NCBI RefSeq assembly: GCF_003997935.1
Contig: NZ_RZQL01000014.1
Coordinates: forward strand, 1-54,643
Length of the DNA stretch: 54,643 nucleotides
Direction: 5' to 3'
From: Mesorhizobium sp. M7A.F.Ca.US.006.01.1.1
Lineage (GTDB): Bacteria; Pseudomonadota; Alphaproteobacteria; Rhizobiales; Rhizobiaceae
The position numbers and the translations under genes are program-made. Below, one piece after another: positions 16,739 to 44,219 of the stretch (positions are counted from its first letter, which is position 1; every line of letters begins with the position of its first letter). The notes beneath the pieces are model-generated. The model saw nothing but the letters and a program-made list of their open reading frames with translations. It did no database searches and was not told where the DNA came from.

Positions 16739-16828
16739 ATGAAGAAGACTTACGCGAAGCCGACCTTCGTCAAGAAGGGCAAGCTTTCAGCCGTCACGGC
16801 AAACGGCTCGACCAGCGCCACGCTTTAA
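16739..16828 (+). CDS. Tiny RiPP-like precursor peptide 1 (lasso-type leader)
   Basis: This 29-residue peptide starts MKKTYAKPTFVKKGKLS and follows the lasso-precursor leader spacing Y-x2-P-x-F-x3-G-x5-T exactly (Y5, P8, F10, G14, T20). T-A ends the putative leader and leaves a core of NGSTSATL. GAGGAGAGATCACG provides the ribosome site. At eight residues the core would be very short for a lasso peptide, which usually starts with Gly or Ala and needs an Asp/Glu at ring position 7-9. No such acid is present, so a true lasso product is doubtful. Four related genes occur in this window. Confidence 0.72.
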   Translation: MKKTYAKPTFVKKGKLSAVTANGSTSATL

Positions 16829-16983
16829 TCGCACTTGGGCGGAGATGCGCCTGGCGCTGAAGCAATTCCAGGAAAACATCGAAGGTTTCGATCCGGAATC
16901 GCGCAAAATAAAGAATTGGAGGGCGGGCACCTTGCCGCTCCTCCTTGGATTTATTGCAGTTTTACCGATTTCAGCCCGCGTGG

Positions 16984-16989
16984 TTGACA
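16984..16989 (+). promoter_or_regulatory. TTGACA -35-like element of peptide gene 2
   Basis: TTGACA within TGGTTGACA, 55 nt before the ATG at 17039. The sequence at 17-bp spacing is ATCATC, a poor -10. Confidence 0.55.
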
Positions 16990-17038
16990 GTTAGCCGCAG
17001 TCTGGCATCATCGGATCGGGATTTTAGGAGAGTCTGAT

Positions 17039-17140
17039 ATGAAAAAGATCTATGCGAAGCCAGTTTTCTTGAAAAAGGGCCGACTGTCGGCGGTCACAGC
17101 GTCAAACGGCGCCTCTATTATTATTAACGGCGCCGCGTAA
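17039..17140 (+). CDS. Tiny RiPP-like precursor peptide 2 (lasso-type leader)
   Basis: This 33-residue peptide starts MKKIYAKPVFLKKGRLS. Y5, P8, F10, G14 and T20 repeat the spacing of peptide 1, 300 bp upstream; the tail after T-A is SNGASIIINGAA. The ribosome site is TTAGGAGAG. The leader is nearly identical to peptide 1, while the tail is unrelated. This is the pattern of a duplicated precursor with a diversified core. No Asp or Glu is present in the tail. It ends in a hairpin at 17155-17180. Confidence 0.72.
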   Translation: MKKIYAKPVFLKKGRLSAVTASNGASIIINGAA

Positions 17141-17154
17141 ACGTAACCTGATTG

Positions 17155-17180
17155 AAGCGGAGCGAAATTTCGCCCCGCTT
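17155..17180. terminator. Hairpin between peptide 2 and the SdrD-like gene
   Basis: AAGCGG-A-GCGAAA pairs with TTTCGC-C-CCGCTT with a single mismatch. It lies between two convergent stops (17140 and 17196) and probably ends both transcripts. Confidence 0.6.
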
Positions 17181-17195
17181 TGGCGTACCCAAATC

Positions 17196-18392
17196 TCAGC
17201 GCGTCAGGACCAAATCGTCCACGACCATTTGCCAATAGTGTTTCGTCGACAGGCGAACACGCGTTACAGCTTTGAGCATCGGGGCGTAGTGCAACGGCGC
17301 GAGCGCCGACAGCGTGATCTGATCGCTTGAGATCAGTTGCTCGCCAAGCCAGCTTTCGATCAGCGCCACCTCCCCTTCCGACGCCAGCCAGGCGGCGCTC
17401 AGCATGACCGAGTGAAAGCCGAACGGCCGTTCGCGGCTGAATTCGGCCGGCAGCCCGCTGCTGGTGTAGAGCACATAGTCACCGGAGACATTGCCATTGA
17501 CATAGCCCTGGCTGTCCTTGGTGTAGTCGCGCGCCATCGCATTCAGGTTGCGCCACGCCAATCCGGCATGACCGGCCGGAATTTTCCTGAAGGGGCGCGA
17601 CGTCACATCGTCGAAACCGATCGTTTGGAGAGCGGCATCAGTGGCGATGCCGGCGCGTTGCGGCGACAGCAGGCCGAGATCCGCCGAGTAGGGCGACAGC
17701 GTCAGCCGCCGCTCCAGGCCGCCGCCACTGACGCTGACCGTGTCGGCTTCTTCAGCCAGGTCGAAGCTGAAGACGGCGCCCGGCGCCAGTGCCCGGTTCT
17801 CCAGGACGTGCCCATTCCCCGACACGGAGAGGGTCGCGGGGCCATCGCCGGCAACGCGCCCACTGACGCGGCGCGGCGGTGCCAGACCGACCGGCAGCAG
17901 CATTTCCTGCGATACCATCCCGGCCGGCGAACCCGGCAGCGGCTGGAAGGGTCGGGACTGAATGTCATTTTCGCTTTTCGCCTGCCAGCCGGGCGGCACC
18001 GAAACCACAAAGCGCCAGTTGCCCGGCTTGCGGATCACGGCCTTTCTGCTTTTCACCGACATGGGGAAATTGGCAAAGCCGGCATTGTTGGTACGCGCGG
18101 ACGCGGCGAGCTTGCCGGCTTCGTCATACAGCCGCACCATGATCCCGGCCATCGGCCGGTCTCCGGCGCCGTATTTGCCGTCGCGATCGACATCGAAATA
18201 GACGAAGGACGAGTAATTGAGCATACCCCCGCGGGCGTTCCAATCGGTACGGACGGCATAGTCGGCAGCTGGATTGGTCTGCCGCCGTCCCTTCCGACGG
18301 CTGCGCTTCCGCCACAGCCGCCAGGACACGACAGCAGCCGCAAGCACCACAATGGCGGCGGACAGTATCTCGACAGCGCCCAAGTCAGGCAT
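17196..18392 (-). CDS. Membrane-anchored SdrD/Cna-B-like hypothetical protein
   Basis: This 398-residue protein has an N-terminal transmembrane anchor (VEILSAAIVVLAAAVVSWRL) followed by a basic stop-transfer stretch (RKRSRRKGRRQ). An SdrD/Cna-B-like beta-sandwich is then recognisable from FVYFDVDRDGKYGAGDRPMA GIMVRLYDEAG, a calcium-loop-like D-x-D-x-D signature. The C-terminal 200 residues are unique and end in a predicted mixed domain with WQMVVDDLVL. The start at 18392 has GAGG upstream; a GTG at 18407 is possible. The function is unknown: possibly a surface or periplasmic binding protein. It faces the peptide genes convergently. Confidence 0.72.
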   Translation of the reverse strand: MPDLGAVEILSAAIVVLAAAVVSWRLWRKRSRRKGRRQTNPAADYAVRTDWNARGGMLNYSSFVYFDVDRDGKYGAGDRPMAGIMVRLYDEAGKLAASARTNNAGFANFPMSVKSRKAVIRKPGNWRFVVSVPPGWQAKSENDIQSRPFQPLPGSPAGMVSQEMLLPVGLAPPRRVSGRVAGDGPATLSVSGNGHVLENRALAPGAVFSFDLAEEADTVSVSGGGLERRLTLSPYSADLGLLSPQRAGIATDAALQTIGFDDVTSRPFRKIPAGHAGLAWRNLNAMARDYTKDSQGYVNGNVSGDYVLYTSSGLPAEFSRERPFGFHSVMLSAAWLASEGEVALIESWLGEQLISSDQITLSALAPLHYAPMLKAVTRVRLSTKHYWQMVVDDLVLTR

Positions 18393-20214: not shown

Positions 20215-21336
20215 TCACTCCGCCGTCCGCGCCAACTGCAAATCCACGAACTGCACCCCCTTAGTCGCCACCCGCGCCCATTCCGAATCCGCATCGAGCT
20301 CGAGATACCGCACCCACAACCGCCGCGCCTCCAGCAGATTGCCGGCGTCGAACTCCAGCCTCGCCAGGTTGAACACCGGATCGGCATAGCTCTTGTCGAG
20401 CGCAATCGCCTTCTGCAGGTGCCTTCGCGCCGAAGCTTCGCGGCCTTGCTCGCTCATCAGCCCGGCGAGGTTGAACCAGGCCTCGACGAAGGCCGGGTCG
20501 AGTTTTATCGCGCTGATATAGGCATGCGCGGCGTCCGCCGCGTGGCCGCCGGCGCGTAGGCAGTTGGCACGGTTGAAGGCGGCTATCGCATCGCTCGGGT
20601 CGATGGCCAGGCAGCGCTGGTAGAGCGCGGCAGCACCTTCATGGTCGCCGCCCTCCTCCGCTGCTTCCGCCTCAGCGAACAGCTCTTCCAGCGTGTCGTC
20701 GCCCTCTGCCCCGGCTGTTCCGAGATCGAAGAGCAACTGCCCGTCGAGTTCGCTCTGACCGCCCTCGAGATAGATCGCGTCGGCGCGCCCATGCTGCGAG
20801 CCGACGTTGAGCGACTTGGCGGTCAGCGACGCCACCGGGCCGGAGCGGTGGACGGAGCGCGCGATCGCCCCCCATGTCGCGCCGCCGGCGATGAGCCCGG
20901 CATATTTGCGCGCCAGGATCAAGTCGCGGAAGGAATAGGGTTCTGCGTCATGCTCGAACGCATCGAACAGCGACAAAAGATCGAGGTCGGCGCCAGATAG
21001 CCGCGATTGCTCGATCAGCGATTGCCGCGAGAGCGAAGACGCCTCCGGCGCCTTCATCAGCCCGAGAAGGCGCAGGAAACCATTCTCGCTGAGGAGCTTG
21101 TGCCCGGCCGCGCGCTCGGCGGCGACACGGCGCTCGATATCGGCGTCGCCGTTCCTGGAAAGCCTGGCCTTGGCGAGCAGAGCGCGGCCGAAGACAACAT
21201 GCGTGGTGCGCCTGGTGATGCCGCGCCGCAGCTGACCGTGCTGACGCTCGGCCTCACGCGCCGCCAGCCTGAGTGGAAACGCCGCCAGCGCGCCGATGGT
21301 ACCGAAGACAGCCCCCGGGACCGCTTGTGCCGTCAT
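20215..21336 (-). CDS. TPR-repeat protein coupled to ku
   Basis: This 373-residue protein has an N-terminal 200-residue unknown region and three or four C-terminal TPR motifs (EEGGDHEGAAALYQRCLAID, then AFNRANCLRAGGHAADAAHA, AWFNLAGLMSEQGREASARR, VFNLARLEFDAGNLLEARRL). The N-terminal part includes MerR-like/helical segments (FRDLILARKYAGLIAGGATW GAIARSVH) that could bind DNA. Its start codon overlaps the ku stop (ATGA, 21333-21336), indicating translational coupling with the NHEJ factor Ku. Its role there is not established. Confidence 0.85.
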   Translation of the reverse strand: MTAQAVPGAVFGTIGALAAFPLRLAAREAERQHGQLRRGITRRTTHVVFGRALLAKARLSRNGDADIERRVAAERAAGHKLLSENGFLRLLGLMKAPEASSLSRQSLIEQSRLSGADLDLLSLFDAFEHDAEPYSFRDLILARKYAGLIAGGATWGAIARSVHRSGPVASLTAKSLNVGSQHGRADAIYLEGGQSELDGQLLFDLGTAGAEGDDTLEELFAEAEAAEEGGDHEGAAALYQRCLAIDPSDAIAAFNRANCLRAGGHAADAAHAYISAIKLDPAFVEAWFNLAGLMSEQGREASARRHLQKAIALDKSYADPVFNLARLEFDAGNLLEARRLWVRYLELDADSEWARVATKGVQFVDLQLARTAE

Positions 21337-22238
21337 TTCTTGCTCTTGCCGACCGCCTTCAGCAGATTGGCCTTCAGCGGATTTTCAGCAGCACCACCCC
21401 CTGCCACCTTCTTCGCGGCGGGTTTGGCGACCTCGTCGGCCTTGCTCTTCGACTTGGCCGGCGGCTTCGGTTGCGACAGGCTCGCCTTGAGCGCATCCAT
21501 CAGGTTGATGACATTGCCGCGCTCGGGGGCTGCCGCGATGATCGGCTTGTGGCCTTTCAGCTTCTCGCGGATCATCGTCATGAGTGCCGCCTCGTAGCGG
21601 TCCTCATAGTTCTTCGGATCGAAGGTGGTTTCCTTCTGCTTGATCAGCGCCTCGGCGAGCTGCAGCATTTCGGGGTCGGGCTTGCCGGCCGGGATGTTGC
21701 CGAAATATTCAGCCGTCCCGCGGACTTCGTTCGGGTTCCTCAAGGTGCACACGAACATGCCGTTCTCGCGCGCACCGATCGTCACCACGCGCTCGCGGCT
21801 GGACAGCACCAGGCGGGCGATCGCCAGCTTGCCGGATTTGCGCATCGCTTCGCGCAGCACGGCGAAGGTCTCTTCCGCCATCGCGCCGTCGGGCGCCATG
21901 TAATAGGGCGCATCCTGATAGATGACATCGACCTCGTCCTCGTCGACGAAGGCCTCGATGTTCATCGTGTGATTGGATTCGATGCGCACCGCATCGAGAT
22001 CGGCATCATCGATGATGATGTACTGCTTGTCCTCGTATTCGTAACCCTTGACCAGATCAGCACGCTCGACGAGCCCTAGTTCGGGGTCGACCGGCTTCAT
22101 GTTGATGCGGTTATGGGTCTTCTTATGCAGCTGGTTGAAGCTGATGCGCTCGCTGGCGCTGGTGGCGGGATATAGCCGCACCGGACAGCTGACGAGGCTG
22201 AGTTTGAGGTAACCTTTCCAACTTGCCCTGGGCGCCAT
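21333..22238 (-). CDS. ku: Ku protein, non-homologous end joining
   Basis: This 301-residue bacterial Ku has the ring-forming core seen in MAPRASWKGYLKLSLVSCPV, FNQLHKKTHNRINMKPV and VKGYEYEDKQYIIID, then the C-terminal lysine-rich tail (KPPAKSKSKADEV ... KAVGKSKK) that modulates DNA binding. The homodimer holds double-strand ends and recruits LigD, encoded 270 bp upstream on the same strand. The start MAPRASWKGY is standard for rhizobial Ku. Confidence 0.95.
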   Translation of the reverse strand: MAPRASWKGYLKLSLVSCPVRLYPATSASERISFNQLHKKTHNRINMKPVDPELGLVERADLVKGYEYEDKQYIIIDDADLDAVRIESNHTMNIEAFVDEDEVDVIYQDAPYYMAPDGAMAEETFAVLREAMRKSGKLAIARLVLSSRERVVTIGARENGMFVCTLRNPNEVRGTAEYFGNIPAGKPDPEMLQLAEALIKQKETTFDPKNYEDRYEAALMTMIREKLKGHKPIIAAAPERGNVINLMDALKASLSQPKPPAKSKSKADEVAKPAAKKVAGGGAAENPLKANLLKAVGKSKK

Positions 22239-22277
22239 GAAACACTCCTACGCGGCCATGCACTGACATTTTAGCTT

Positions 22278-22326
22278 GAGCATGATCTTATCCGAAAACC
22301 GGTTCCCACTTTTCGGGATCATGCTC
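22278..22326. repeat. Mesorhizobium-type palindromic repeat
   Basis: Perfect arms GAGCATGATC (22278-22287) and GATCATGCTC (22317-22326) enclose a core TTATCCGAAAACCGGTTCCC followed by ACTTTTCGG. This is a very common intergenic repeat of mesorhizobia as I remember it. It lies between ligD and ku. Confidence 0.85.
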
Positions 22327-22511
22327 TCTGCAGCGCTTTTCGTCCGAAGGACGATTGGCGACGCGCAAATCCTACACCGACCCCACACGATACAGGCAAA
22401 TCCCTGACGAAATCTTTTAGGGCGCCTGAGGGGTCGCAGGCTAAGGATAATTCAAATTGTATGAAGCGTCGATGGACTTGGATTCCTCGCCCCCGAGTGG
22501 AGGCGAGGAAC

Positions 22512-24995
22512 CTAGTTCTTCAAGGTCGGCAAATCCCGCGCGAACTCGTCGATCTCGGCCCATGGATCGCCCGACGTCGCCAGCAGCCCCGGCAGGGAGG
22601 AATAGTTCAGATCCTGCGGCGCATCGATGGATTCCAGATCGCTCCAGCTCACCGGGGTCGAGGCCGGCAGATTGGTGCGGGCGCGCAGCGAGTAAGGAGC
22701 TGCGGAGGTGTGGCCGCGCGCATTGCGGTGATAATCGATGAAGATGCGCTTCTTGCGGTTGTCCTTGCCCATGGTGGTGGTGAAAGTATCAGGCGCCGTT
22801 GTCGCCAGATGCGTGGCTATCGCGCTGGTCGCCTGGTGCAGTTTCTTCCAGTTCTGCTTGCCCGTCACCGGCACGGTGATGTGGATGCCGCTGCCACCGG
22901 AGGTCTTGGCGAACGGCACCAGCCCCAGGCGCTCCAATTCGCCCTTGATGTGCACGGCAGCCTCGACCACCTCGCGCCAGGCGATCCCTTCTCCCGGATC
23001 GAGGTCGAGGACGATCTGGTCGGGTCTGTCGAGGCTGGTGCGGTGGGTGCCCCAGGTGTGGAACTCGACGACGCCGAACTGCGCCAGCGCCAGATACCCT
23101 TTCGCGCCTTCGACCGAGAGATAGGATTTGGTCTCGCCCTCGGAATTCGTCGCCTCGAACGTCACCACCGAGGGCGGCATGCCGGTGAAGGCGTGGCGCT
23201 GGAAGAAGCAGTCCTTCGGCAGGCCGGTCGGGCAGCGCACCAGCGACACCGGCCGGCCGAGAATGTGCGGCAGCATGAAATCGCCGACCAGCGCGTAATA
23301 GACCGCGATGTCGAGCTTGGTCGGGCCGGTCTTGCCGAACAACCGGCGCGTCGGGTTGGTCACCCAGATGGTGGCAAGGTCGGCCTCGGCGATCAGCCGC
23401 TTGCGCTTGGACGAAACCGGAGTCGACAGGCCGACATCCCTCAAACCGCGGAAGACGCCGTGGCGCAGTGCATTGTCCGAGGTGCGGTTAGCGTAATGGA
23501 TGCGCGCCGACAGCAGCGGCCGCACCCAGTTCATCTCGCGCATGATTTCGCGCGGGACACCCTCGGGCGCGGTGGCGCCTTCCCGCAACGGCTCCAGCCT
23601 GGCGAGCAATTCACCGACGGTGGCGGCATCGAAACCGGTGCCGACTTTGCCGCGATAATGCAATTCACCACCCTCGAACTCTGCCATGCCGAGCGCCGCC
23701 AACCCTTCGGCCGCATCGGAAATGGTGAAGCCGGCGATGACGAAGTCGCCCGACTGCAGCGCCTTGGTCTTGGTCCAGCTTTTGCTTCGGCCGCTCTGAT
23801 AGACGGCCGTGGCGCGCTTTGAGACGACACCCTCCAGCCCAAGTTCCGACGCCTGGTCGTAGAGCCCCTGCCCCGAGCCCTCGACATGGTCGGAGAACTG
23901 GATGGCGGAATTGGCGCCGAGGCCCGACAGCATCTGCGCCAGCAGCGCCTTGCGCCGGACCAGCGGCGCCTTGGTCAGGTCCCAGCCGTCGAGATGGAGA
24001 AGATCGAAGGCGTAAAAATGGAGCTTGCTGCCGGCGCCCTCGGCCAGCGCATCCTGCAGCAGCGCGAAGCGGCTGATGCCCTTGGCGTCAAGCACGACGA
24101 TCTCGCCATCGATGATGGCATCGCGGCACGGCAGCTTCGCGAAGGCATGCGGCAGGTCGCCATAGCGCTTCGTCCAGTCGATGCCGCCACGGGTGATCAG
24201 CTTGACCGCGCCGTCAGTGAGATGCGCCATGGTGCGGTAACCGTCGAATTTGATCTCATGCAGCCAGACTTCCCTCGTGTCCTCGCCATCCGGTGGTTTT
24301 GGCACCTGCGTCGCCAGTTGCGGCTCGATACGGGCAAGCATGAGGGCCTTGAATGCGCCCGGCAGTGTGCCGGGCTTCAGCGATCCCTGTCTGAGCGCGG
24401 GTCTGGCGGCGGGCTTTGCCGGCGCCGCCAGCTCCTCGATGCGCAATCCGGATTTGACGCTTTCCGGCCGCGCCGTGAGGATGTCAAGCGCGGTGTCGGC
24501 GGCGAGGTCACGCTCCTTGAAGAGCAGCCAGTTCTTCTTGTTTTCGTCTTCGCCGGGTTTCGGCTTCAGCCGGGTCAGCATCCAGCCGCCATTGAGCTTG
24601 TCGCCGGCCAGCCGGAACTTGAAGGCGCCGGTGCGCAAGCTCTTTTCGACATCGTCCATCGGCGCCCAGGTGCCAGTGTCCCAGACGATCATCGGCCCGC
24701 CGCCATACTCGCCCTCGGGAATGACGCCCTCGAAGTCGATATATTCGAGCGGATGATCCTCGGTCTCGACCGCCAGCCTTTTGTCGGCCGGATTGAGCGA
24801 AGGCCCGCGCGGCACCGCCCAGCTCTTCAAGACATCGCCGACCTGCAGTCGCAGATCATAATGGTCTGCGGTGGCGTGGTGCTTGTGCACGACGAAGCGG
24901 TTGCCGTCGCTGCTGACGAGCCCGCCAGCCGGTTCCGGCGTCTTGGCGAATTCGCGTCTGGCGCGATAGGCTTTGAGCTTTGGTGGAGTGGTCAT
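22512..24995 (-). CDS. ligD: Multifunctional DNA ligase D
   Basis: This 827-residue NHEJ enzyme has, in order: a 3'-phosphoesterase domain (RFVVHKHHATADHYDLRL, about residues 30-180, with WAVPRGPSLNP); an ATP-dependent ligase domain (catalytic Lys in HEIKFDGYR, about residue 247, then GLEGVVSKRATAVYQSGRSK); and a C-terminal primase-polymerase domain (KLDIAVYYALVGDFMLPH ... IVLDLDPGEG with the metal-binding D-x-D, then SGGSGIHITVPV). The PE-LIG-POL order is common in Proteobacteria. It seals Ku-bound ends, filling gaps first. It is upstream of ku on the same strand. Confidence 0.96.
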   Translation of the reverse strand: MTTPPKLKAYRARREFAKTPEPAGGLVSSDGNRFVVHKHHATADHYDLRLQVGDVLKSWAVPRGPSLNPADKRLAVETEDHPLEYIDFEGVIPEGEYGGGPMIVWDTGTWAPMDDVEKSLRTGAFKFRLAGDKLNGGWMLTRLKPKPGEDENKKNWLLFKERDLAADTALDILTARPESVKSGLRIEELAAPAKPAARPALRQGSLKPGTLPGAFKALMLARIEPQLATQVPKPPDGEDTREVWLHEIKFDGYRTMAHLTDGAVKLITRGGIDWTKRYGDLPHAFAKLPCRDAIIDGEIVVLDAKGISRFALLQDALAEGAGSKLHFYAFDLLHLDGWDLTKAPLVRRKALLAQMLSGLGANSAIQFSDHVEGSGQGLYDQASELGLEGVVSKRATAVYQSGRSKSWTKTKALQSGDFVIAGFTISDAAEGLAALGMAEFEGGELHYRGKVGTGFDAATVGELLARLEPLREGATAPEGVPREIMREMNWVRPLLSARIHYANRTSDNALRHGVFRGLRDVGLSTPVSSKRKRLIAEADLATIWVTNPTRRLFGKTGPTKLDIAVYYALVGDFMLPHILGRPVSLVRCPTGLPKDCFFQRHAFTGMPPSVVTFEATNSEGETKSYLSVEGAKGYLALAQFGVVEFHTWGTHRTSLDRPDQIVLDLDPGEGIAWREVVEAAVHIKGELERLGLVPFAKTSGGSGIHITVPVTGKQNWKKLHQATSAIATHLATTAPDTFTTTMGKDNRKKRIFIDYHRNARGHTSAAPYSLRARTNLPASTPVSWSDLESIDAPQDLNYSSLPGLLATSGDPWAEIDEFARDLPTLKN

Positions 24996-25442: not shown

Positions 25443-25535
25443 TCAGCTTGGCGATGACGACAGGATCGTTATCGCCGTGACGCTGGTGAGTTGCTGGCGC
25501 TTGTTAAGCGTCGGCTTTTCGTAAATCTTTTTCAT
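25443..25535 (-). CDS. Tiny RiPP-like precursor peptide 3 (lasso-type leader)
   Basis: This 30-residue peptide starts MKKIYEKPTLNKRQQLTS. Y5, P8, L10 and T20 are at the lasso-leader spacing, with Q in place of the usual G14; the tail after T-A is ITILSSSPS. GGGGATTTTA precedes the ATG. It lies at the left edge of the polysaccharide locus. The gene lies inside a longer meaningless frame that runs up to 25889. No ring-closing Asp/Glu is present. Confidence 0.7.
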   Translation of the reverse strand: MKKIYEKPTLNKRQQLTSVTAITILSSSPS

Positions 25536-25589: not shown

Positions 25590-25595
25590 TGTCAA
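25590..25595 (-). promoter_or_regulatory. TTGACA -35-like element of peptide gene 3
   Basis: On the minus strand CGCTTGACAAAGCGC places CTTGAC, the alphaproteobacterial -35, 60 nt before the start at 25535. The hexamer 17 bp on (CCACTT) is weak. Confidence 0.55.
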
Positions 25596-26814: not shown

Positions 26815-26893
26815 CGAGATGATCTGCCGAAAACGCTAACTTAAAAAAATCTGCCGAGGACACTCACTTCTGAACGTCAAGCGGCGCTTTCAA

Positions 26894-26922
26894 ATATAGA
26901 GCCAACCAACCCTGTCAACAAG
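26894..26922 (-). promoter_or_regulatory. Promoter of GT9 copy A
   Basis: On the minus strand CTTGTT (26922-26917) and CTATAT (26899-26894) are spaced by exactly 17 bp, close to the alphaproteobacterial CTTGAC-N17-CTATAT consensus. The same pair is conserved at 28271-28299 in the duplicated unit. Confidence 0.65.
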
Positions 26923-27076
26923 CTTGCCGTGCCTTGGTGCCTCTTTGCATCGGTCGTTGGCGACCGGCAAACGCTTGTCCTAATCCTTCAATCGCCGCCG
27001 CAAGCGGCGCGTCACACCCGACCGGCCTTGAGCAGCCCCGGATGGAGCACACGCGCAGCTTCGTTCGGTCGCCAGC

Positions 27077-29583: not shown

Positions 29584-29595
29584 ATGCTTCTCCCG

Positions 29596-34834: not shown

Positions 34835-36084
34835 CAGGCTGGTCGCGTCGGCGGGTGCTGCGGACGGCGCTTTCCACTGCGGCGGCTCTCGGCTCGCTCC
34901 CGGTCGCTCGCGCCGCCGCCGGGCCGCGGTTTCGGCGCGGCGTCAACGCCTGGCCCTGGTTCTCGCTGACGCGCGAATTTCCCGCCCCCCGCACCGACTA
35001 TGGCTGGCCGCCCTTCCAGTCGCAACGGCCGGTGCCGACACCGGACGACCTGCGCCGGCTGCGCGAGACCGGGCTCGATTTCATCCGTCTGCCCGTCGAT
35101 CCCGGCCCTTTCCTGGCCGCCGACGCCAAGACGCGCAGTCAGTTGCTGGACATGCTGGACGCGGCTGTCACCGCCACCCTCGACGCCGGTCTCGGCATCA
35201 TCCTCAACATCCAGGCCAATGCCGCCACCCATTACTGGAACCCCGACCGCATGGTCTCCAGCACCGTGGCACCCGCCTTCGATCTCTATCGCGGGCTGGT
35301 CGGCGAGCTTGCCGGCAGGCTGGCGCGGTTCCAGCCCGGCAGGGTGGCGCTCGAGCCGGTCAACGAACCGGCGCAGGCCTGCGCGTCGAACGTCTGGTTG
35401 CAAATTCAGCTCGCGCTTCTGACCGCGGCAAGGGCATCGGCAGCGACCCTGCCGCTGGTCCTCACCGGAGGCTGCGGCTCGATGGTGAGCGGGCTGACCG
35501 CGCTCGATCCGGCACCGCTGTCGCCCTTCGAGCCGATCCTGTTCACCTTCCACTTCTATGAGCCCTATCTGTTCAGCCATCAGGGCGCGCCCTGGATGCG
35601 CGAGCCCGTCTACCGGTCGCTCAACAATGTGCCGTGGCCGGCATCCGCCGGCTCGCTGCAACAGACGCTGGCATCGGTCAGGGCGCGCATGGCGCAGGAC
35701 ACCGAAACCTCTGCAGATGCCAAGCAAGCCGCCTATGCCGAGACCGAGCGTGTGCTGAAAGTCTATTTCGACGCCCAGCCCGACCGCTGGTTTGTCGACA
35801 AATATCTTCGCCAGGTTCGCGATTGGGCCGACGGCCATAGCCTTGCGCCGGAACGCATCATCATGGGCGAGTTCGGCGCGCTGCGCACCGACGCCCGCTA
35901 TGTCGCCGCGCCCAACCCGGATCGCGGGCGCTACATCGCCGATGTCAGGCGGAGCGCCGAGGAACTCGGCTTCGCCTGGGCACTGTGGGATCTCTTCGAT
36001 GGTATGGGCATGATGGACGACACCACCCGGGCGCTGGACCCCGAAATCATCGCGGCGCTTGGCCTGACCATGCCGGCGGACTGA
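34831..36084 (+). CDS. Tat-exported GH5-like glycoside hydrolase
   Basis: This 417-residue protein has a twin-arginine signal peptide (MTGWSRRRVLRTALSTAAAL, ending ARA-AAG). A TIM-barrel follows with the GH5 acid/base Glu in VALEPVNEPAQACA (about residue 182), the catalytic-fold FHFYEPYLFSHQG and the nucleophile Glu in IIMGEFGALRTDA (about residue 349). It could trim or process the polysaccharide in the periplasm. Its start overlaps the GT gene by ATGA and its end overlaps the convergent polymerase gene by 38 bp. Confidence 0.88.
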   Translation: MTGWSRRRVLRTALSTAAALGSLPVARAAAGPRFRRGVNAWPWFSLTREFPAPRTDYGWPPFQSQRPVPTPDDLRRLRETGLDFIRLPVDPGPFLAADAKTRSQLLDMLDAAVTATLDAGLGIILNIQANAATHYWNPDRMVSSTVAPAFDLYRGLVGELAGRLARFQPGRVALEPVNEPAQACASNVWLQIQLALLTAARASAATLPLVLTGGCGSMVSGLTALDPAPLSPFEPILFTFHFYEPYLFSHQGAPWMREPVYRSLNNVPWPASAGSLQQTLASVRARMAQDTETSADAKQAAYAETERVLKVYFDAQPDRWFVDKYLRQVRDWADGHSLAPERIIMGEFGALRTDARYVAAPNPDRGRYIADVRRSAEELGFAWALWDLFDGMGMMDDTTRALDPEIIAALGLTMPAD

Positions 36085-37378
36085 CCGGCCTGAACGCTGC
36101 CTGCGCCGGCCGGTAGAGCACCAATGCCAGCACCACGAATTTGGTCAGCAGCGTCGTCTTCGACGCGACGCTTTCCGAGGTGTTGATCAGGATGACCCAG
36201 CCCAGCATCGGCAGCCAGATGCCGGGATGGCAGCGGCGCGCCACCTCGAACAGGAACAGCACGAAGCCGAACGTCAGCAAAAGGGTGAAGAAGGCGCCCT
36301 GATAGAGGACCGTGCGGATGATCGGATTCTCGATGCCCTGTTCGAGACCGTTGATGCGACGCAGACTGTCGATCAGCTCGACATCCGGCCCCACGATCAG
36401 ATCGTGCAATTCCAGGTGCTTGAAGAGCTCGAACATCTCGACGCGGGCATTGGCGCTGCCGCTGTCCGACACGAAGCGCTCCAGCAGCGCGTCGAAAAAG
36501 CCATAGTATGCCGCCACGATGATGACGACCGGCAGCAGCGCGGCAAGCATGAAGCCGAGTGCCGCACCCAGGAGATTGACGCGGCCCTGGCGCAATCTGG
36601 TGATGCCCTGAAAAAGCAGGTAGCAGCCGCCGAGCACCACCGTCGTCACCATCGCGGTGCGGCCGCCGAAGGCGACGAGTGCCGCGCATTGCAGGCCGAT
36701 CAACCCTATCCGCACAGGCATCGACAGGGATCTGGCACCGGAGAGCAGCGCAAGCACATAGATCGACGTCACCATGGCATTGGCAAGCGGATGCCCCTGC
36801 AGCGCGCTCGAGCGCAGATCGGTGGTAAACGCCACGCCGTCCAGGCGATAGGGGAAGATAAGCGTCTTGGTGGCGAACTCGAAAAGGGCAAGCAGCGCAT
36901 TCGCCGTCATGACCACGTGAACGACGGTCTGCAGCCCGGCGAAGGTCCGTTCGTCGTCCTCGCTGAGCATCAGCACCAGAAGTGCCGCAGCGACGAACGT
37001 ATCGATCATGCCGGCCATGCCGGGCCGCTGCCTGGCGATGACGACGAACAGAAGCACGATCGATATGGCGGCCATCAGCGCGCTGGCCGGCCGCCTGTCG
37101 GCGAGATGGACGATATGGCCGGCCGGATTGCCTGATGCGCAGGAGCGCCAGGCAAACAGGAGGACGATGAGATAGGTGGACGGGTGGATCTTGGTCGCCG
37201 GGTTGCCGAACAGGCCATCATAATTGTAGCCGACCAGCCACAGCATGCCGCCCGAGATGCTGAACAGCACCGCTACCGCCGAGATCAGTCCGAAGCGCGT
37301 CAGCGCATCGACCGACGTGCCGGCGCGAGGCGCGGCGGCACCATGGTTCGAAGCGCTTGCGCTCCAACTGGCCGCCAT
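36047..37378 (-). CDS. VpsF-like polysaccharide polymerase (Wzy/O-antigen ligase type)
   Basis: This 443-residue protein has about 10-11 transmembrane helices, for example GLISAVAVLFSISGGMLWLV, LMAAISIVLLFVVIARQRPG and LLGAALGFMLAALLPVVIIV. A large periplasmic loop near the C-terminus carries ALLERFVSDSGSANARVEMF and the polar HDLIVGPDVELID. The N-terminal NYDGLFGNPATKIHPSTYL is typical of VpsF-like polymerases. It probably polymerises the repeat unit. It starts 1 nt after the stop of the Wzc-like gene, so the two are coupled, and its end overlaps the GH5 gene on the other strand. Confidence 0.82.
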   Translation of the reverse strand: MAASWSASASNHGAAAPRAGTSVDALTRFGLISAVAVLFSISGGMLWLVGYNYDGLFGNPATKIHPSTYLIVLLFAWRSCASGNPAGHIVHLADRRPASALMAAISIVLLFVVIARQRPGMAGMIDTFVAAALLVLMLSEDDERTFAGLQTVVHVVMTANALLALFEFATKTLIFPYRLDGVAFTTDLRSSALQGHPLANAMVTSIYVLALLSGARSLSMPVRIGLIGLQCAALVAFGGRTAMVTTVVLGGCYLLFQGITRLRQGRVNLLGAALGFMLAALLPVVIIVAAYYGFFDALLERFVSDSGSANARVEMFELFKHLELHDLIVGPDVELIDSLRRINGLEQGIENPIIRTVLYQGAFFTLLLTFGFVLFLFEVARRCHPGIWLPMLGWVILINTSESVASKTTLLTKFVVLALVLYRPAQAAFRPVSPPAWSGQAPR

Positions 37379-37379
37379 A

Positions 37380-39482
37380 TCAGGCGGCCTCGTCGACCAG
37401 CAAGGCGGCTGTCGGCAGGCGCCCCATGACGGAAACCGCCTGCGAAGTCGTCGTGACGTCGCGCATCGGGGTGGCGTTCAGCGTGGCGACGAGCACGATC
37501 TCGTCGGCCATGGCGACCAGCGGCGAGGCATTGAGATTGTCGGCCAGCGCGCCACCGTCGATGACGACGAGCTCGAAGCTCCGGCTGGCCCGGGCCAACA
37601 TCTGTTGCGCAAAATAGATGCCATGCGCTTCCTGGAAGACCGCCTTTGAGCGGCCCCTGCCCAGCACGGCAACGTTGCTGCCGGCGGCGTAATGGCTGAC
37701 GGCCTCGAAGGCGTACTCGCCGCGCAGCACATCGAGAATTCCCGGCTGCGGATCCTTCTGGTCGCCGCCGCCGGCATTGGCATCGATGAACAGCACACGG
37801 CTGCCCCTGGATGCCGCGGCATTGGCCAGCAGCCGCGCCACCCGGCTGCGCTGCGCGCCCTCGCCCGGCGACGATGTCACCAGGATGGAAGGCACCAGCG
37901 GCCAGTCCGCCGGACGCTGGCCTGAACTGAACATGCGCCTCAGCGCAAGGCCGACGACGGCGTCGGTCTTCTGGCTGGAGCCGGCGGCGCGCGCCCCGCC
38001 GAAAGGCCACCAGCGCCGGCCGGTGTCTGACTTTGCCGGCACCACGCCCAGCACCGGCGCGTCGATGGCCGACTGCATCTGGGCGCTGGAAAGCACTGTC
38101 GGCGAGGAATATTCGGCGATCAGCGCCAGACCGGTGCCGAGCCCAAGGCCGCCGAATATCGCGCCCAGCAACAGCAGCGGCAAAGGCGGCCAGCTCTTCT
38201 TCAAGGCGGGCATGGCGTTGGAGATGATGCGCGCATTGGTGCTGTCGACATTGATCTGCTCGCGCGTCTCCTGGGCGCGCTGGAGATAGTTCGAGTAGAC
38301 GGAACGCAGCGCCTCGAGATCGCGCTGCAATTCGCGCAGCCGCACCGAGGCCTGGTCGGTGTCGAGCGACTTGCTCTTCATGCCCGCGACCTTGGCTTCC
38401 AGCGCCTGCTGGTTGGCCAGCGCCCGTTCGTAGTCGGTCTCGGTGGCGGTGGCGATACGGCCGAGTTCGCGTGCGATCAGCTGGCGCGTGTCGCGCAGCT
38501 GCTGCTGGGCGGCGATCAGCGAGGGATGACGCGGCCCCAGCTCCGTGCCGAGCTGCGAGACCTGGTCGACCAGCGTCGCCTCTTGCGCCCGCAGGCTGGA
38601 GATCACCGCCGAGCGCATTGCTTCCGAAGTTGCGTCCGCCGTGCCGCTCTGCCGGCGCATCTGGTCGACCTGCGCCTTCAGCGCCGCGGTGCGGCTTTGC
38701 GCCGCCGAAAGCTGCGTGTTGATCTCGGTCAGTTCCTGGTCGCTGACCAGATTGCCCGCCGCCATCACCATGTTGTTGGCGGACTTGTAGGCCTCGACGG
38801 CATTCTCGGCCTGCTGGACGCGTTTGCGCTGTTCGTCCAGCCGCGCGGTGATCGACTCGGAGGCGTCCTTGGCCATTTTCGCGCGCGCGCTCGCCTGGTC
38901 GACCAGGTAGGCCTGCGCGATGGCGTTGGCCAGGAGGGCGGCCTTGTCGGCGCTCTTGGCGGTGACGATGACGTCGAGGACCAGGACCTTGTCGGCCCGC
39001 TTCACCGCCAGGCGACGGCGCAGCGCGTCGAGTGTCTGCACCGACCTGTCGCCTTCGGCTGATGCCGAACCGAGCAGGCGCGACAGCAAGCCTTGCCCAT
39101 TGAATTCCGGATCCTGCGTCAGGTTTGTCGCCGCGATCGCCCGCATCAGCACGCCTGTCGACTGGACCACGCTGACCTGGCTCTCGACCTGCGTGATGCC
39201 GCCATCGGGTGAGATACGGCTGGGATTGACGTCGTTGGTGACCACCTGCAGGTCCTGCGGGTCGATGAGGATTTCCGCCGCCGAACTGTAGAGCGCGGGC
39301 GTGAAAAGGCCGTAGAGCAGGGCGGCCAGCGTCAGCAGTGCGACGGTACCGAAGATCCAGAACCGGCGGCGCACCAGGATGCGCTTCAGATCGCCCAGTT
39401 CGACAGTGGAGGCTGCGTATGATCCCGCGCGTGCCGCATCCGGGGAGTGTTGCTGAGGAACCATGGGCAGGGATGATTGCAT
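37380..39482 (-). CDS. Wzc/GumC-like polysaccharide co-polymerase with degenerate kinase domain
   Basis: This 700-residue protein starts at 39482 (GGAGG upstream; the frame reaches 39515). It has an N-terminal Wzz domain: TM1 FWIFGTVALLTLAALLYGLF, then LYSSAAEILIDPQDLQVVTN. A long coiled coil (about residues 180-430) and TM2 (LPLLLLGAIFGGLGLGTGLA) follow. The C-terminal BY-kinase-like domain is decayed: the Walker A position reads SSPGEGAQRSRVA without the P-loop Lys, although the Walker A' VLFIDANAGGG and the B-like LVVIDGG remain. No C-terminal tyrosine cluster is seen. It probably controls chain length and export without kinase activity. Confidence 0.88.
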   Translation of the reverse strand: MQSSLPMVPQQHSPDAARAGSYAASTVELGDLKRILVRRRFWIFGTVALLTLAALLYGLFTPALYSSAAEILIDPQDLQVVTNDVNPSRISPDGGITQVESQVSVVQSTGVLMRAIAATNLTQDPEFNGQGLLSRLLGSASAEGDRSVQTLDALRRRLAVKRADKVLVLDVIVTAKSADKAALLANAIAQAYLVDQASARAKMAKDASESITARLDEQRKRVQQAENAVEAYKSANNMVMAAGNLVSDQELTEINTQLSAAQSRTAALKAQVDQMRRQSGTADATSEAMRSAVISSLRAQEATLVDQVSQLGTELGPRHPSLIAAQQQLRDTRQLIARELGRIATATETDYERALANQQALEAKVAGMKSKSLDTDQASVRLRELQRDLEALRSVYSNYLQRAQETREQINVDSTNARIISNAMPALKKSWPPLPLLLLGAIFGGLGLGTGLALIAEYSSPTVLSSAQMQSAIDAPVLGVVPAKSDTGRRWWPFGGARAAGSSQKTDAVVGLALRRMFSSGQRPADWPLVPSILVTSSPGEGAQRSRVARLLANAAASRGSRVLFIDANAGGGDQKDPQPGILDVLRGEYAFEAVSHYAAGSNVAVLGRGRSKAVFQEAHGIYFAQQMLARASRSFELVVIDGGALADNLNASPLVAMADEIVLVATLNATPMRDVTTTSQAVSVMGRLPTAALLVDEAA

Positions 39483-39593
39483 GGCTGCCTCCGACAATAC
39501 TCCATATGCCGGCAAGATCAGTTTGCGGCACTAACCTAGCTATTCCTCCAACTGTTAAAACATTGTTAATTATGTTGAGAGGTGACGTGAATT

Positions 39594-39610
39594 TTGGCAC
39601 GCGGTTTGCT
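39594..39610 (+). promoter_or_regulatory. Sigma-54 (RpoN) promoter
   Basis: TTGGCACG-CGGT-TTGCT matches the -24/-12 consensus (YTGGCACG-N4-TTGCW) throughout, with GG (39596-97) and GC (39608-09) separated by exactly 10 bp. It is 122 bp before the start of the GINT1-like gene at 39732 and on the same strand. Transcription would start near 39621. No NifA-type TGT-N10-ACA site was seen upstream, so the activator is unknown. Confidence 0.75.
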
Positions 39611-39731
39611 TAAAAATATACATATCGAGATGTTGGCTACGTAGCGAGCGGAGACGGATGCAGATGGGGCTACAATTTGACCGGACCGGCCTGGCCGGCA
39701 AGGCCGGGCACTGCCTTTTCGGACCTCCAAC

Positions 39732-41228
39732 ATGCAGATAAGCCTACGCCTGGACGGCGACTGCGTCCGCGCCTTTCACGTCACGCTGCTGGAGCGCCTC
39801 GCCGCGCTCAACGACGTCGAACTGTCCGTCGATGTCAGGCCGGCGGGCGGCGGCATTCCGCGCAGCGCCGCGGCCCTGTTTCAACTCGAAACGGCGATCC
39901 ACGGACTGTCTCATGATGGACTGGCCAAGCGTGTGCCGCTTTCGGCGCTCGCGCCCTACCGGCAATCCCCCGCTTCGCCTGACCTGGTCGTCGACCTCTG
40001 CGGCGACGTCAGGCTGGAAAGCACACGGGTCTGGCGCGTCACCTATGACGGCGCCAGCGGCGAAGCGGCCTTGCTGGCCCTTGTCCTCGCCGGCCGCACG
40101 CCGCTTGCCCGCATAGAGGAGAACGGCGTTGCGATCGCCGCCGGACGTCTGGGCACCGAATATGGCGGCATCGCGCTGGCGTCCTTCCAGGATATGCTGG
40201 CGCGCACAGCAAGCCTGATCATAGCTGCCATGTCAGGCGCTGCAAAATCGGCGCCTGATCTGCCCGAGCCGGCGCAGGCAGGCAGCCCGCCGCCAATGCC
40301 CTCGGCCGGCAAGCTTGGGGTCAGAGCCGGCAAGGCGCTGGCGCGGCGGATCGTTCAGAAGATCTATCACCTTTGCTACAACGCGCCGCACTGGAAGGTC
40401 GGCTGGCGGCAAACCGGAGGCCGCGATCTGTTCGACCTGCGCGCGCATCCGGCGTCGGGTTGGCAAGATCTGCCGGACGATGGCAGTCGCTTCTACGCCG
40501 ACCCGTTCCCTATCCTCTACCGGGGCCAGCTGACCCTGTTCGTCGAGGACTATATCCATCGGCTCGGCAAAGCCATCATCTCCGCCGTTCCCTTCGGCCC
40601 GGCAGGCCCGCTCGGAAGGCCTGAACCGGTGCTGGAGCTGCCCTACCATCTCTCCTACCCCTTCGTCTTCGAGCGCGACGGCGAGGTCTGGATGGTGCCG
40701 GAAAGCTGCGCCAACGGCACGGTCGATCTCTACCGGGCCACTGCCTTCCCCGGCGGATGGGTCAAGGAAACGACGCTCCTGTCCGATGTCGTCGCCAGCG
40801 ACGCCACGCTTGTCGAGCATGGCGGCGCCTGGTGGCTGTTCGCCACTGTCCGCGACGGCGGCGGCGCCTTCTCCGACGCGCTGCATCTGTGGTCGGCGCC
40901 GGATTTTCGCGGCCCCTGGACGCCGCACCCCAAAAATCCCGTGCTGATCGACATCGCCTCGGCGCGGCCGGCCGGCCGCATGGTCAGGCGCGGCAACGAC
41001 CTGCTGCGCCCGGTCCAGGACTGCCGCAGGAGCTATGGCGCGGCGCTTGGCATCGCACGCATTTCTCACCTTGATTTGATCGGCATGGAACAGGTCGTTG
41101 AAACCATCTTAAATCCAGGTGCGCTATGGAGTGGGCGTAAACTTCACACGCTCAACGAGGCTGGCGGCTTTGAGTTCATCGATGGCTCGGCGATCGCACC
41201 GCGCTGGAAGCAGCGGACCCGCGATTAA
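39732..41228 (+). CDS. GINT1-like glycosyltransferase/beta-propeller protein
   Basis: This 498-residue protein has an N-terminal 180-residue region of unknown fold (LSVDVRPAGGGIPRSAAALF; VVDLCGDVRLESTRVWRVTY). A five-bladed propeller-like part follows with SRFYADPFPILYRGQLTLFV EDY, WMVPESCANGTVDLYRA, VASDATLVEHGGAWWLFATV and GNDLLRPVQDCRRSYGAALG. The propeller blocks resemble the glucosamine-inositolphosphorylceramide transferase-like domain found next to formyltransferase or exopolysaccharide genes. It probably transfers a sugar or acyl group in this locus. It is the first gene after the sigma-54 promoter and is followed by the FAD enzyme. Confidence 0.75.
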   Translation: MQISLRLDGDCVRAFHVTLLERLAALNDVELSVDVRPAGGGIPRSAAALFQLETAIHGLSHDGLAKRVPLSALAPYRQSPASPDLVVDLCGDVRLESTRVWRVTYDGASGEAALLALVLAGRTPLARIEENGVAIAAGRLGTEYGGIALASFQDMLARTASLIIAAMSGAAKSAPDLPEPAQAGSPPPMPSAGKLGVRAGKALARRIVQKIYHLCYNAPHWKVGWRQTGGRDLFDLRAHPASGWQDLPDDGSRFYADPFPILYRGQLTLFVEDYIHRLGKAIISAVPFGPAGPLGRPEPVLELPYHLSYPFVFERDGEVWMVPESCANGTVDLYRATAFPGGWVKETTLLSDVVASDATLVEHGGAWWLFATVRDGGGAFSDALHLWSAPDFRGPWTPHPKNPVLIDIASARPAGRMVRRGNDLLRPVQDCRRSYGAALGIARISHLDLIGMEQVVETILNPGALWSGRKLHTLNEAGGFEFIDGSAIAPRWKQRTRD

Positions 41229-42606: not shown

Positions 42607-42705
42607 TCAGGTTGCCGTCGACGAAGGTGTCGAGGGGATAGTCTGTGCCGTGACGCCCGAAAGCCTGTCGCGCTTCTGCAAGGTTGGTTTCTCGTATTTC
42701 TTCAC
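42607..42705 (-). CDS. Tiny RiPP-like precursor peptide 4 (lasso-type leader, GTG start)
   Basis: This 32-residue peptide starts at a GTG (42705) after GGAGGGCATTTTACA, a strong ribosome site. It reads MKKYEKPTLQKRDRLSGVTA, then QTIPSTPSSTAT. Y4, P7, L9 and T19 have the lasso-leader spacing, with D in the Gly position. The tail is Thr/Ser/Pro-rich with no acidic residue. It sits in the gap between the FAD enzyme and the 2-hydroxyacid dehydrogenase, at the right edge of the polysaccharide locus, on the opposite strand to both. Confidence 0.68.
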   Translation of the reverse strand: MKKYEKPTLQKRDRLSGVTAQTIPSTPSSTAT

Positions 42706-42759
42706 TGTAAAATGCCCTCCAAATTGATACGACGCCAGCAGAACCAATTCCCTGCCCCG

Positions 42760-42765
42760 TGTCAA
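42760..42765 (-). promoter_or_regulatory. TTGACA -35-like element of peptide gene 4
   Basis: On the minus strand AATTGACACGG places TTGACA 60 nt before the GTG at 42705. No good -10 at 17-bp spacing. Confidence 0.5.
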
Positions 42766-42961
42766 TTGTGTCATTACTGGTCCTTACGTCGTTTCCGCGT
42801 CATCGTGGTCAAACGATTATTCACTGTTGCATTGCCGGCACATATCAGCTCCGACAGGGCACCTCATCGCAGCGCCAATCGCGCTCTCCTTGCCTCTCTG
42901 CGCGATGTTGTAAATCGTTTCATCCAAGGTATTTTGGCCATCGGGAACAGAGGGAACAGTC

Positions 42962-43993
42962 ATGTCCAACAGCGCCTTGCCGCTGGTCATCAGTGCGCCG
43001 GAACCACGCACGCTCGACCTGATCTTCACAGCCCAGCAGCTGGCGCGGCTCAAGGCGCACTATCGGATCGTCGAGACGACCGCTGACGGCGTCGCGAAAC
43101 TGCCGGCCGACGTGCTGGCCGAGGCGCGCTACATCATCGGCCAGCCGCCCATATCGTCCGAAACGCTCGACCGGATGAAAGCGCTGCGCTGCGTCTTCAA
43201 TGTCGAGACCAACCTCATCAACAACATGCCCTACGAGACCTTGTTCGCGCGCGGCATCCATGTCGTCACCACCGGCCTGGTGTTCGCCGAACCGGTCGCC
43301 GAGCTTGGGCTTGCCATGGCGCTTAACCTCGCCCGCGACATCGTCGATGCCGACCTCGCCTTCCGCCAGGGACAGGAACTGTGGGGCGGCGATGGCAACC
43401 AGAGGGCGCGGCTCTTGTCCGGCGCCGATGTCGGCATCATCGGTTTCGGCGATCTCGGCCGGGCGCTTAACCGGCTGCTGTCGGGTTTCCGCACCCGCAC
43501 CAAAGTCTTTGATCCCTGGCTGCCGCCATCGATCCTCATGGACAATGGCGTCGAGCCGGCCTCTCTCGACGAGGTGCTGTCGACCAGCGACTTCATCTTC
43601 GTCGTTGCCTCGGTAACCAGCGAGAACCAGGGTTTTCTCGGCGCCGACGCGTTTGCCGGCATGCGCAAGGGCGCCGCCTTCATCCTGCTCAGCCGCGCTG
43701 GCGTGGTGGACTTCCCGGCGCTGATGGCGGCGGTGAAGAGCGGCCACGTCGCCGCCGCCAGCGACGTTTTCCCCGAAGAACCGCTGGCGCGGGACCATCC
43801 GGTGCGCACCCTGCCCGGCTTCCTGCGCTCGGCTCACCGCGCCGGCGCGCTCGACATCGCCTTCAAGCGCATGGGCGATATGGTGCTGGAGGACATGGAC
43901 CTGATCGACCGCGGTCTGCCGCCGCTGCGCTCCAAGCGCGCCGAGCGCGAGACGGTTTCGCGCATGCGTTCCAAGCCGGCCGACAGGAATTGA
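42962..43993 (+). CDS. D-isomer-specific 2-hydroxyacid dehydrogenase
   Basis: This 343-residue NAD(P)-binding protein of the phosphoglycerate-dehydrogenase superfamily has the dinucleotide loop DVGIIGFGDLGRALNRL (about residues 157-173). The catalytic Arg is in ILLSRAGVVDFPAL, the Glu in SDVFPEEPLARDHPV and the His in FLRSAHRAGALDIAF. Its substrate is unknown; the N-terminal region (RYIIGQPPISSETLDRMKAL) is family-like. The gene lies 104 bp before the peptide gene at 44097 on the same strand and may be regulated with it. Confidence 0.9.
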   Translation: MSNSALPLVISAPEPRTLDLIFTAQQLARLKAHYRIVETTADGVAKLPADVLAEARYIIGQPPISSETLDRMKALRCVFNVETNLINNMPYETLFARGIHVVTTGLVFAEPVAELGLAMALNLARDIVDADLAFRQGQELWGGDGNQRARLLSGADVGIIGFGDLGRALNRLLSGFRTRTKVFDPWLPPSILMDNGVEPASLDEVLSTSDFIFVVASVTSENQGFLGADAFAGMRKGAAFILLSRAGVVDFPALMAAVKSGHVAAASDVFPEEPLARDHPVRTLPGFLRSAHRAGALDIAFKRMGDMVLEDMDLIDRGLPPLRSKRAERETVSRMRSKPADRN

Positions 43994-44038
43994 GGCGTGG
44001 GTTTTCGTCCCGGTCGGCCGACCCTCGACAAGGTCGGC

Positions 44039-44044
44039 TTGACA
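44039..44044 (+). promoter_or_regulatory. TTGACA -35-like element of peptide gene 5
   Basis: GGCTTGACAAGAG contains CTTGACA 58 nt before the ATG at 44097. The hexamer at 17-bp spacing is GACGCT, a poor -10. Confidence 0.55.
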
Positions 44045-44096
44045 AGAGCGCGGCCGGCGATGACGCTGCCGCAATCGAACCTTGCGGAGGGAAGCC

Positions 44097-44219
44097 ATGA
44101 ACATGAAGAAGATCTATGAAAAACCGATGCTGCTCAAACGGCAGAAACTCTCCGCCGTGACGGCGCAGCAAGCCGCTTCAGGAGTGACAGGGCCGACTGG
44201 CCCGACTGGCCCGGCATGA
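44097..44219 (+). CDS. Tiny RiPP-like precursor peptide 5 with GPT-repeat tail
   Basis: This 40-residue peptide starts MNMKKIYEKPMLLKRQKLSA. Y7, P10, L12 and T22 have the same spacing as the others (Q in the Gly position). The tail after T-A is QQAASGVTGPTGPTGPA, a collagen-like G-P-T repeat. GGAGGG precedes the ATG; the second Met at 44103 is the other start. It is the only family member with a repetitive tail. It follows the 2-hydroxyacid dehydrogenase on the same strand. Confidence 0.72.
   Translation: MNMKKIYEKPMLLKRQKLSAVTAQQAASGVTGPTGPTGPA

What the first reader, a model, noticed from the sequence alone, without database searches (positions are those of the whole stretch)
16739..44219. 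Dispersed family of five tiny peptides with a lasso-peptide-type leader and variable tails
Seen: five unannotatably short genes (16739-16828+, 17039-17140+, 25443-25535-, 42607-42705-, 44097-44219+) share MKK-[TI]-Y-[AE]-KP and a Y-x2-P-x-[LF]...T-A spacing. Two of the five keep the Gly at the lasso-leader position (Y-x2-P-x-L-x3-G-x5-T). After T-A the tails differ completely: NGSTSATL; SNGASIIINGAA; ITILSSSPS; QTIPSTPSSTAT; QQAASGVTGPTGPTGPA. All five have a ribosome site. Known: this leader motif is recognised by lasso-peptide RRE/peptidase proteins. Inferred: a conserved leader with diversified cores is the signature of RiPP precursors. But no tail has an Asp/Glu for a lasso ring, and no asparagine-synthase-like cyclase, transglutaminase-like protease or PqqD-like protein is in the window. 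Either the enzymes act in trans or the peptides have a different fate.
Basis: partly seen in the sequence, partly recalled or inferred. Interest (0 to 1): 0.85.

Follow-up and report, generated by a model that had tools for sequence, protein, structure and literature searches.

The report
Scattered mini-peptides share one distant factory
Many Mesorhizobium bacteria carry several scattered tiny genes whose peptides share a lasso-type leader and a conserved serine, and these peptides are likely trimmed and predicted to be phosphorylated by one distant set of enzymes that lacks the ring-closing lasso enzyme.

Summary
The five tiny genes are real and belong to a larger family: ten copies in this genome, one degenerate, and copies in 83 of 119 genomes of the genus. 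Leader positions are those of lasso peptides: Tyr(-17), Pro(-14), Leu(-12), Thr(-2). The tails are not fully divergent: Ser at core position 5 occurs in all five and in 80 of 99 distinct peptides.

The enzymes missing from the window are on contig C466 of the same genome: PqqD-type RRE, B2 protease, HprK/PEPCK-fold kinase and PF14907 transferase, without lasso cyclase. This B2 occurs in 80 of 119 genomes, all with 3-20 peptides. Ten genomes with the lasso cyclase but no cassette have 0 or 1; four with the cassette but no cyclase have 6-7. In several other genera peptides lie beside the cassette, often in tandem.

Best reading: linear RiPPs made in trans, probably Ser-phosphorylated; a dispersed, B2-dependent alphaproteobacterial counterpart of the linear polyphosphorylated peptides (LPPs) described in Bacillota in 2026. 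Modification, product, export and function are untested.

The parts
16739..16828 (+). precursor peptide gene 1, leader MKKTYAKPTFVKKGKLSAVTA, core NGSTSATL
16686..16691 (+). TTGACA box, 47 bases before gene 1 (sigma-70 -35 consensus, recalled; promoter role inferred)
17039..17140 (+). precursor peptide gene 2, core SNGASIIINGAA
16984..16989 (+). TTGACA box, 49 bases before gene 2
25443..25535 (-). precursor peptide gene 3, core ITILSSSPS
25590..25595 (-). TTGACA box, 54 bases before gene 3
42607..42705 (-). precursor peptide gene 4 (GTG start, leader one residue shorter), core QTIPSTPSSTAT
42760..42765 (-). TTGACA box, 54 bases before gene 4
44097..44219 (+). precursor peptide gene 5 (start 44097 or 44103), core QQAASGVTGPTGPTGPA
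44039..44044 (+). TTGACA box, 52 bases before gene 5 (counted from 44097)

Best explanation
The five genes belong to a dispersed family of precursor peptides, mostly of 28-40 residues, that are likely processed in trans by one cyclase-less lasso-type cassette (RRE, B2 cysteine protease, HprK/PEPCK-fold kinase, PF14907 transferase), which would phosphorylate a conserved core serine and cut off the leader to give short linear peptides. Shown by sequence: the leader positions Y(-17), P(-14), L(-12), T(-2), A(-1); the conserved Ser near core +5; the cassette on contig C466 of the same genome; its co-occurrence with the family; its physical linkage to family members in other genomes. Inferred: the RRE binds the leader, the kinase acts on the Ser, the PF14907 protein adds a group (perhaps a sugar) to the phosphate, B2 cuts after T-A. 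Unknown: exporter, final structure, biological role.
Against: No expression, mass or biochemical data. The kinase is below curated cut-offs for HPr kinases (18.1 against 33.3 bits; HprK_rel_A 33.1 against 200), and the structure matches shown are PEP carboxykinases. The Ser could serve another modification, and its place drifts outside Mesorhizobium: S/T at 4-6 in 64 of 74, S at +5 in 34 of 74. G342 has the cassette but no peptide near it. Three genomes keep one peptide match without the cassette. No exporter was recognised beside the cassette (one query). Genomes of one genus are not independent, so the counts overstate; of the four cassette-without-cyclase genomes one is only 79% complete. 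The profile was trained in part on peptides from some of the loci it then searched.
Confidence: 0.7

Rival explanations
1. The peptides are substrates of the genome's ordinary lasso pathway on contig C124 and become lasso peptides.
For: The genome has a lasso cluster (cyclase NF033535, 788.5 bits, cut-off 525; B2; PqqD-type protein) whose own precursor has the same Y-x2-P-x-L-x3-G-x5-T leader. In relatives the lasso cyclase gene lies near the cassette: 26.4 kb in G179, 26.7 kb in G206, 33.0 kb in G159, 9.4 kb in G170.
Against: Four genomes lack the cyclase but hold 6-7 peptides; ten hold the cyclase without the cassette and have 0 or 1. D/E at core 7-9 in only 6 of 99, five of them with G/A/S/C at position 1. 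The C124 cluster has its own precursor.
Confidence: 0.06
2. The cassette only removes the leader and the peptides act as unmodified linear signals; kinase and PF14907 protein act on something else.
For: The leader up to T-A is the best conserved part; short G/S/P/A-rich cores.
Against: Kinase and PF14907 genes are in 79 and 78 of 80 cassette loci; the core Ser is conserved far above shuffled cores; related kinases act on the precursor in PMC10368454 and PMC13381572.
Confidence: 0.15
3. The conserved serine carries a different main modification, such as a sugar, nucleotidyl or acyl group, with phosphate at most an intermediate.
For: PF14907 is conserved; an AMP-ligase and a carrier-protein gene lie by the cassette in some non-Mesorhizobium loci (carrier protein in 11 of 80 loci); the review PMC8498205 (passages) says that a lasso nucleotidyltransferase adds hexose to phosphorylated pseudomycoidin.
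Against: No carrier-protein hit in the Mesorhizobium loci, where the AMP-ligase hits come from a neighbouring acyl-CoA-synthetase-like gene (my reading of position and sequence); deleting lppN changed nothing visible in PMC13381572.
Confidence: 0.25

Closest known systems
Linear polyphosphorylated peptides (LPPs), Popov et al. 2026, PMC13381572 (sections 4, 6, 7, 12 and passages read)
   Same: Discrete RRE, HprK-like kinase and NTP transferase without lasso cyclase; YxxP leader; linear cores; Ser near the start of the core; co-exist with true lasso clusters.
   Different: LPPs use a signal-peptidase-like LppS and an MsbA-like transporter, have one to three precursors of 35-200 residues per cluster, and are called restricted to Bacillota. 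Here the peptidase gene in the cassette is a lasso-type B2, no exporter was recognised, precursors are mostly 28-40 residues, 3-20 per cassette-bearing Mesorhizobium genome, mostly dispersed, in Alphaproteobacteria, with Ser mostly at +5 rather than +3.
Phosphorylated lasso peptides: paeninodin type and Bsf (PMC8498205, PMC10368454, passages read)
   Same: YxxPxL leader with Thr (or Ile/Val) at -2, B1, B2, kinase and nucleotidyltransferase; BsfK phosphorylates an internal Ser3 with RRE help.
   Different: No macrolactam cyclase in any of 80 cassette loci; cores lack the ring acid.
Prochlorosins (recalled, no call)
   Same: Many diverse precursors served in trans by one enzyme.
   Different: Lanthipeptides made by a ProcM synthetase; unrelated leader and chemistry.
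NCBI name 'putative RiPP precursor'
   Same: Given to three close relatives of the 44097 peptide in Mesorhizobium.
   Different: A name only; the call gives no enzymes, modification or core motif. No NCBIfam family reached its cut-off with the five peptides.

Membership tests
lasso peptides | YxxPxL...T(-2) leader | tested here: met
   Y 97, P 99, L 83, T 81 of 99
lasso peptides | RRE (B1) and B2 protease | tested here: met
   B2 NF033537 73.8 bits, cut-off 33; RRE matches TfuB1 (E 9e-7) and TbiB1 (E 1e-4), but is below the NCBIfam lasso_PqqD cut-offs (39.2 against 70)
lasso peptides | macrolactam cyclase with the precursors | tested here: not met
   0 of 80 cassette loci; peptide presence dissociates from the C124-type cyclase
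lasso peptides | core with G/A/S/C at 1 and D/E at 7-9 | tested here: not met
   only 5 of 99 have it
LPP (Popov et al. 2026) | RRE, HprK-like kinase and NTP transferase without cyclase | tested here: met
   the kinase is below curated HPr-kinase cut-offs but has the PEPCK-type fold
LPP (Popov et al. 2026) | signal-peptidase-like LppS as leader peptidase | tested here: inconclusive
   the gene between RRE and kinase is a B2, not a signal peptidase; LppS homologues were not searched for elsewhere
LPP (Popov et al. 2026) | MsbA-like transporter in the cluster | tested here: inconclusive
   no hit of one ABC query at 1e-20 in 80 loci
LPP (Popov et al. 2026) | (poly)phosphorylated core serine | not testable with these tools
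   a conserved Ser is present; the modification needs mass spectrometry

The most novel reading that the evidence does not exclude
A genome-wide, prochlorosin-style library of linear phospho(glyco)peptides in rhizobial symbionts: about eight independently promoted precursors per genome with a fixed lasso-type leader, a fixed serine and hypervariable flanks, all matured in trans by a single stripped-down lasso machine that has no cyclase and mostly coexists with a complete lasso pathway in the same cell.
Probability: 0.5. Interest if true: 0.85.

Novelty: new variant of a known kind. Interest (0 to 1): 0.74.

Why it matters
It gives a likely enzyme set to peptides that NCBI names only 'putative RiPP precursor', and makes the pathway testable with four genes. 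It would extend linear phosphorylated RiPPs, described as restricted to Bacillota, to Alphaproteobacteria, with a different leader peptidase and a dispersed, many-substrate layout. RRE-Finder (PMC7470986, passages) reports almost 8,000 proteins best matched by its discrete lasso RRE model, of which only about 4,000 co-occur with peptidase and cyclase; cassettes of this kind may explain some of the rest. Two pathways with near-identical leaders in one cell are a natural test of how RREs keep substrates apart.

Tried and rejected
Rejected: the peptides as substrates of the C124 lasso cyclase (dissociation; ring acid lacking). Rejected: a pathway inside the window; the long ORF 42920-44104(-) with no Pfam hit is antisense to a 2-hydroxyacid dehydrogenase at 42962-43993(+). 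Rejected: glycosyltransferases as cassette genes; the GT2 and GT4 genes of C466 were not among the ORFs conserved in at least 4 of 20 relatives. Rejected: an AMP-ligase as a cassette gene in Mesorhizobium; the hits there fit a neighbouring acyl-CoA-synthetase-like gene.

No help: Pfam and NCBIfam scans of the five peptides (all below cut-off); PDB sequence searches for B2 and kinase (best E 0.67 and 0.014, unrelated proteins). In the 50 rows shown for the kinase model all are PEP carboxykinases; no HPr kinase is among them. The PF14907 model (pLDDT 91.2) gave only weak matches, best E 0.03 to LnuA. No clear -10 box follows TTGACA. A class-wide B2 search found only the own genome among 385. Of the 80 loci L247 shows none of the other cassette genes and L180 no PF14907. 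The protein that I label GNAT-like in G131 had no Pfam match; that label is my reading.

Literature: searches listed no paper on this family; I saw the listings only (for example 15 of 23 papers, 10 of 21, 8 of 20, 6 of 554), and only openly licensed PMC papers are held.

Dropped rows: of 107 distinct peptides, one search kept 99, leaving out 7 with E above 1e-3 and 1 without the Y..P anchor. The 99 come from the best-scoring places fetched, not from all matches, include orthologues and members from a few other genera, and one is a copy of window gene 5 cut by a locus end. The 74 peptides share 7 with the 99. L256 was dropped from the kinase alignment (wrong frame), L188 and other rows from the B2 alignment (stop codons in my ranges). 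Not tested: RNA-seq, mass data, RRE-leader co-folding.
Full report
Observation. The five frames are where the finder put them and read as reported. A profile of the five finds them and five more places in the same genome: C528, C131, C144 and C556 are good members, C230 is degenerate. All nine good members have Ser in the same column. The genus is read as Mesorhizobium because one genome of the set, G179, has a contig of the same length (524477) as the named record behind L206, Mesorhizobium sp. M7A.F.Ca.US.008.03.1.1, and because three close relatives of the 44097 peptide are named from that genus. The own genome has no PF00733 match on the window's contig at E 1e-3 and no PF13471 match there at E 10. 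Twenty-five window proteins were scanned with Pfam (some of them antisense frames); none is a lasso enzyme.

Coding. Among 466 pairs of related leaders (Y to A, 1-12 base differences) the differences fall on codon positions 1, 2, 3 as 838, 749, 2356; in 39 close pairs of cores as 66, 77, 151. Leaders are 67% and cores 25% identical on average over 4278 pairs of 93 peptides; cores against shuffled cores give 19%.

Anatomy of the peptide. In 99 distinct peptides Y(-17) is kept in 97, P(-14) in 99, L(-12) in 83, T(-2) in 81 and A(-1) in 94. These are the lasso positions given in PMC10368454. The core has 7-15 residues in 92 of 99 and is rich in G, S, P, A. Ser at +5 occurs in 80 of 99, Ser at 4-6 in 93, Ser or Thr at 4-6 in 95; shuffled cores reach at most 28, 57 and 72 in 2000 runs. 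In 74 peptides from outside the genus, copied, Ser or Thr at 4-6 occurs in 64 and Ser at +5 in 34; that script allowed a one-residue shift of the anchor. TTGAC occurs 35-85 bases before 57 of 99 genes, against 5 of 99 in an equally long stretch further up; all five window genes have TTGACA. This is the sigma-70 -35 consensus (recalled); no clear -10 was seen.

Link between peptides and cassette. Genus, 119 genomes: peptides 83 (E 1e-3), cassette B2 80 (E 1e-5, one match each), both 80, neither 36; the three exceptions have one peptide match each. Control, the C124-type lasso cyclase: 86 of 119 at E 1e-60; ten of these lack the cassette and have 0 (7) or 1 (3) peptides, while four cassette genomes lack the cyclase and have 6-7. 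One of these four is 79% complete, so its lack may be an assembly gap. Family, 151 genomes: seven hits each, six shared. Order, 397 genomes: 14 peptide genomes, all among 17 B2 genomes. Two of the other three have five and four divergent tandem peptides beside the cassette, at profile scores of 11.8-25 for which no reversed-DNA control was run; G342 has none nearby. Class, 385 genomes: only the own genome at E 1e-10.

Linkage. In G131 four tandem peptides lie beside RRE, B2, kinase, AMP-ligase, an unassigned protein that I read as GNAT-like (no Pfam match), carrier protein and PF14907; in G025 one peptide directly precedes the RRE; in G038 peptides stand at both ends of the cassette. In G085 the four peptide matches lie far from the cassette, so dispersal is not limited to Mesorhizobium. 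PqqD is in 79, kinase in 79, PF14907 in 78, lasso cyclase in 0. Peptides of score 18 or more are in 42 of 80 loci, 78 in all; at 25 or more in 34 loci. Reversed DNA gives a best score of 13.3. The profile had been trained in part on peptides from some of these loci. In 18 Mesorhizobium loci one peptide sits just before the RRE gene, at the head of the cassette.

Mechanism. The RRE would bind YxxPxL and present the peptide; the kinase would phosphorylate the Ser near +5; the PF14907 protein may decorate the phosphate; B2 would cut after T-A. Published parallels: BsfB1, BsfK and BsfB2 (PMC10368454, passages), LppB and LppK (PMC13381572, sections 4, 6, 7, 12), and the hexose-adding nucleotidyltransferase of pseudomycoidin (PMC8498205, passages). 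The role is unknown. Window peptides 3, 4 and 5 flank a VpsF-type polysaccharide cluster, and PMC13381572 notes that LPPs often lie near capsule loci; this is a lead only.

Comparison and novelty. By feature tests it is not a lasso peptide (no cyclase, no ring acid). It works like an LPP but differs in peptidase gene, precursor size, copy number, dispersal and taxon. The RiPP label itself is not new. The link to the cassette, the conserved serine and the trans layout were not found in print in the searches named under Tried and rejected. I score it as a new variant of a known kind.

Noticed in passing
L042 (own genome C124) 424-6425: Lasso cluster with its own precursor, PqqD-type protein, B2, cyclase, HprK-like kinase and ABC transporter; in relatives the cyclase gene lies 9-33 kb from the cyclase-less cassette (four genomes compared).
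   Followed up: partly
window 25699-41228: VpsF-type polysaccharide cluster (two GT9, two Acetyltransf_6, GT4, VpsF, GINT1_N) flanked by peptide genes 3, 4 and 5.
   Followed up: partly
window 21333-24995: Ku and LigD genes of a bacterial end-joining system.
   Followed up: no
L159, L160, L162, L202, L224, L246: Outside Mesorhizobium the cassette is in some loci joined by an AMP-ligase and a carrier protein, in some also by an unassigned protein that I read as GNAT-like, suggesting an acyl modification.
   Followed up: partly
L178 9564-11350 (-): Ten tandem precursor genes, most with S or T near core 4-5, beside one cassette in a Rhizobiaceae MAG.
   Followed up: no
L051, L062, L065, L174, L309 peptides: A subgroup of cores carries two cysteines around the serine (for example ACTPSTCPV, IACPISQCGD), perhaps a disulfide.
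   Followed up: no
L049 2761-4583 (+): A GT2-like and a GT4-like gene lie between kinase and PF14907 gene in the own genome; not among the ORFs conserved in at least 4 of 20 relatives.
   Followed up: partly
L185: A short contig of a MAG named Candidatus Sedimenticola endophacoides carries the cassette and one peptide; a transfer outside the class or a contaminating contig.
   Followed up: no
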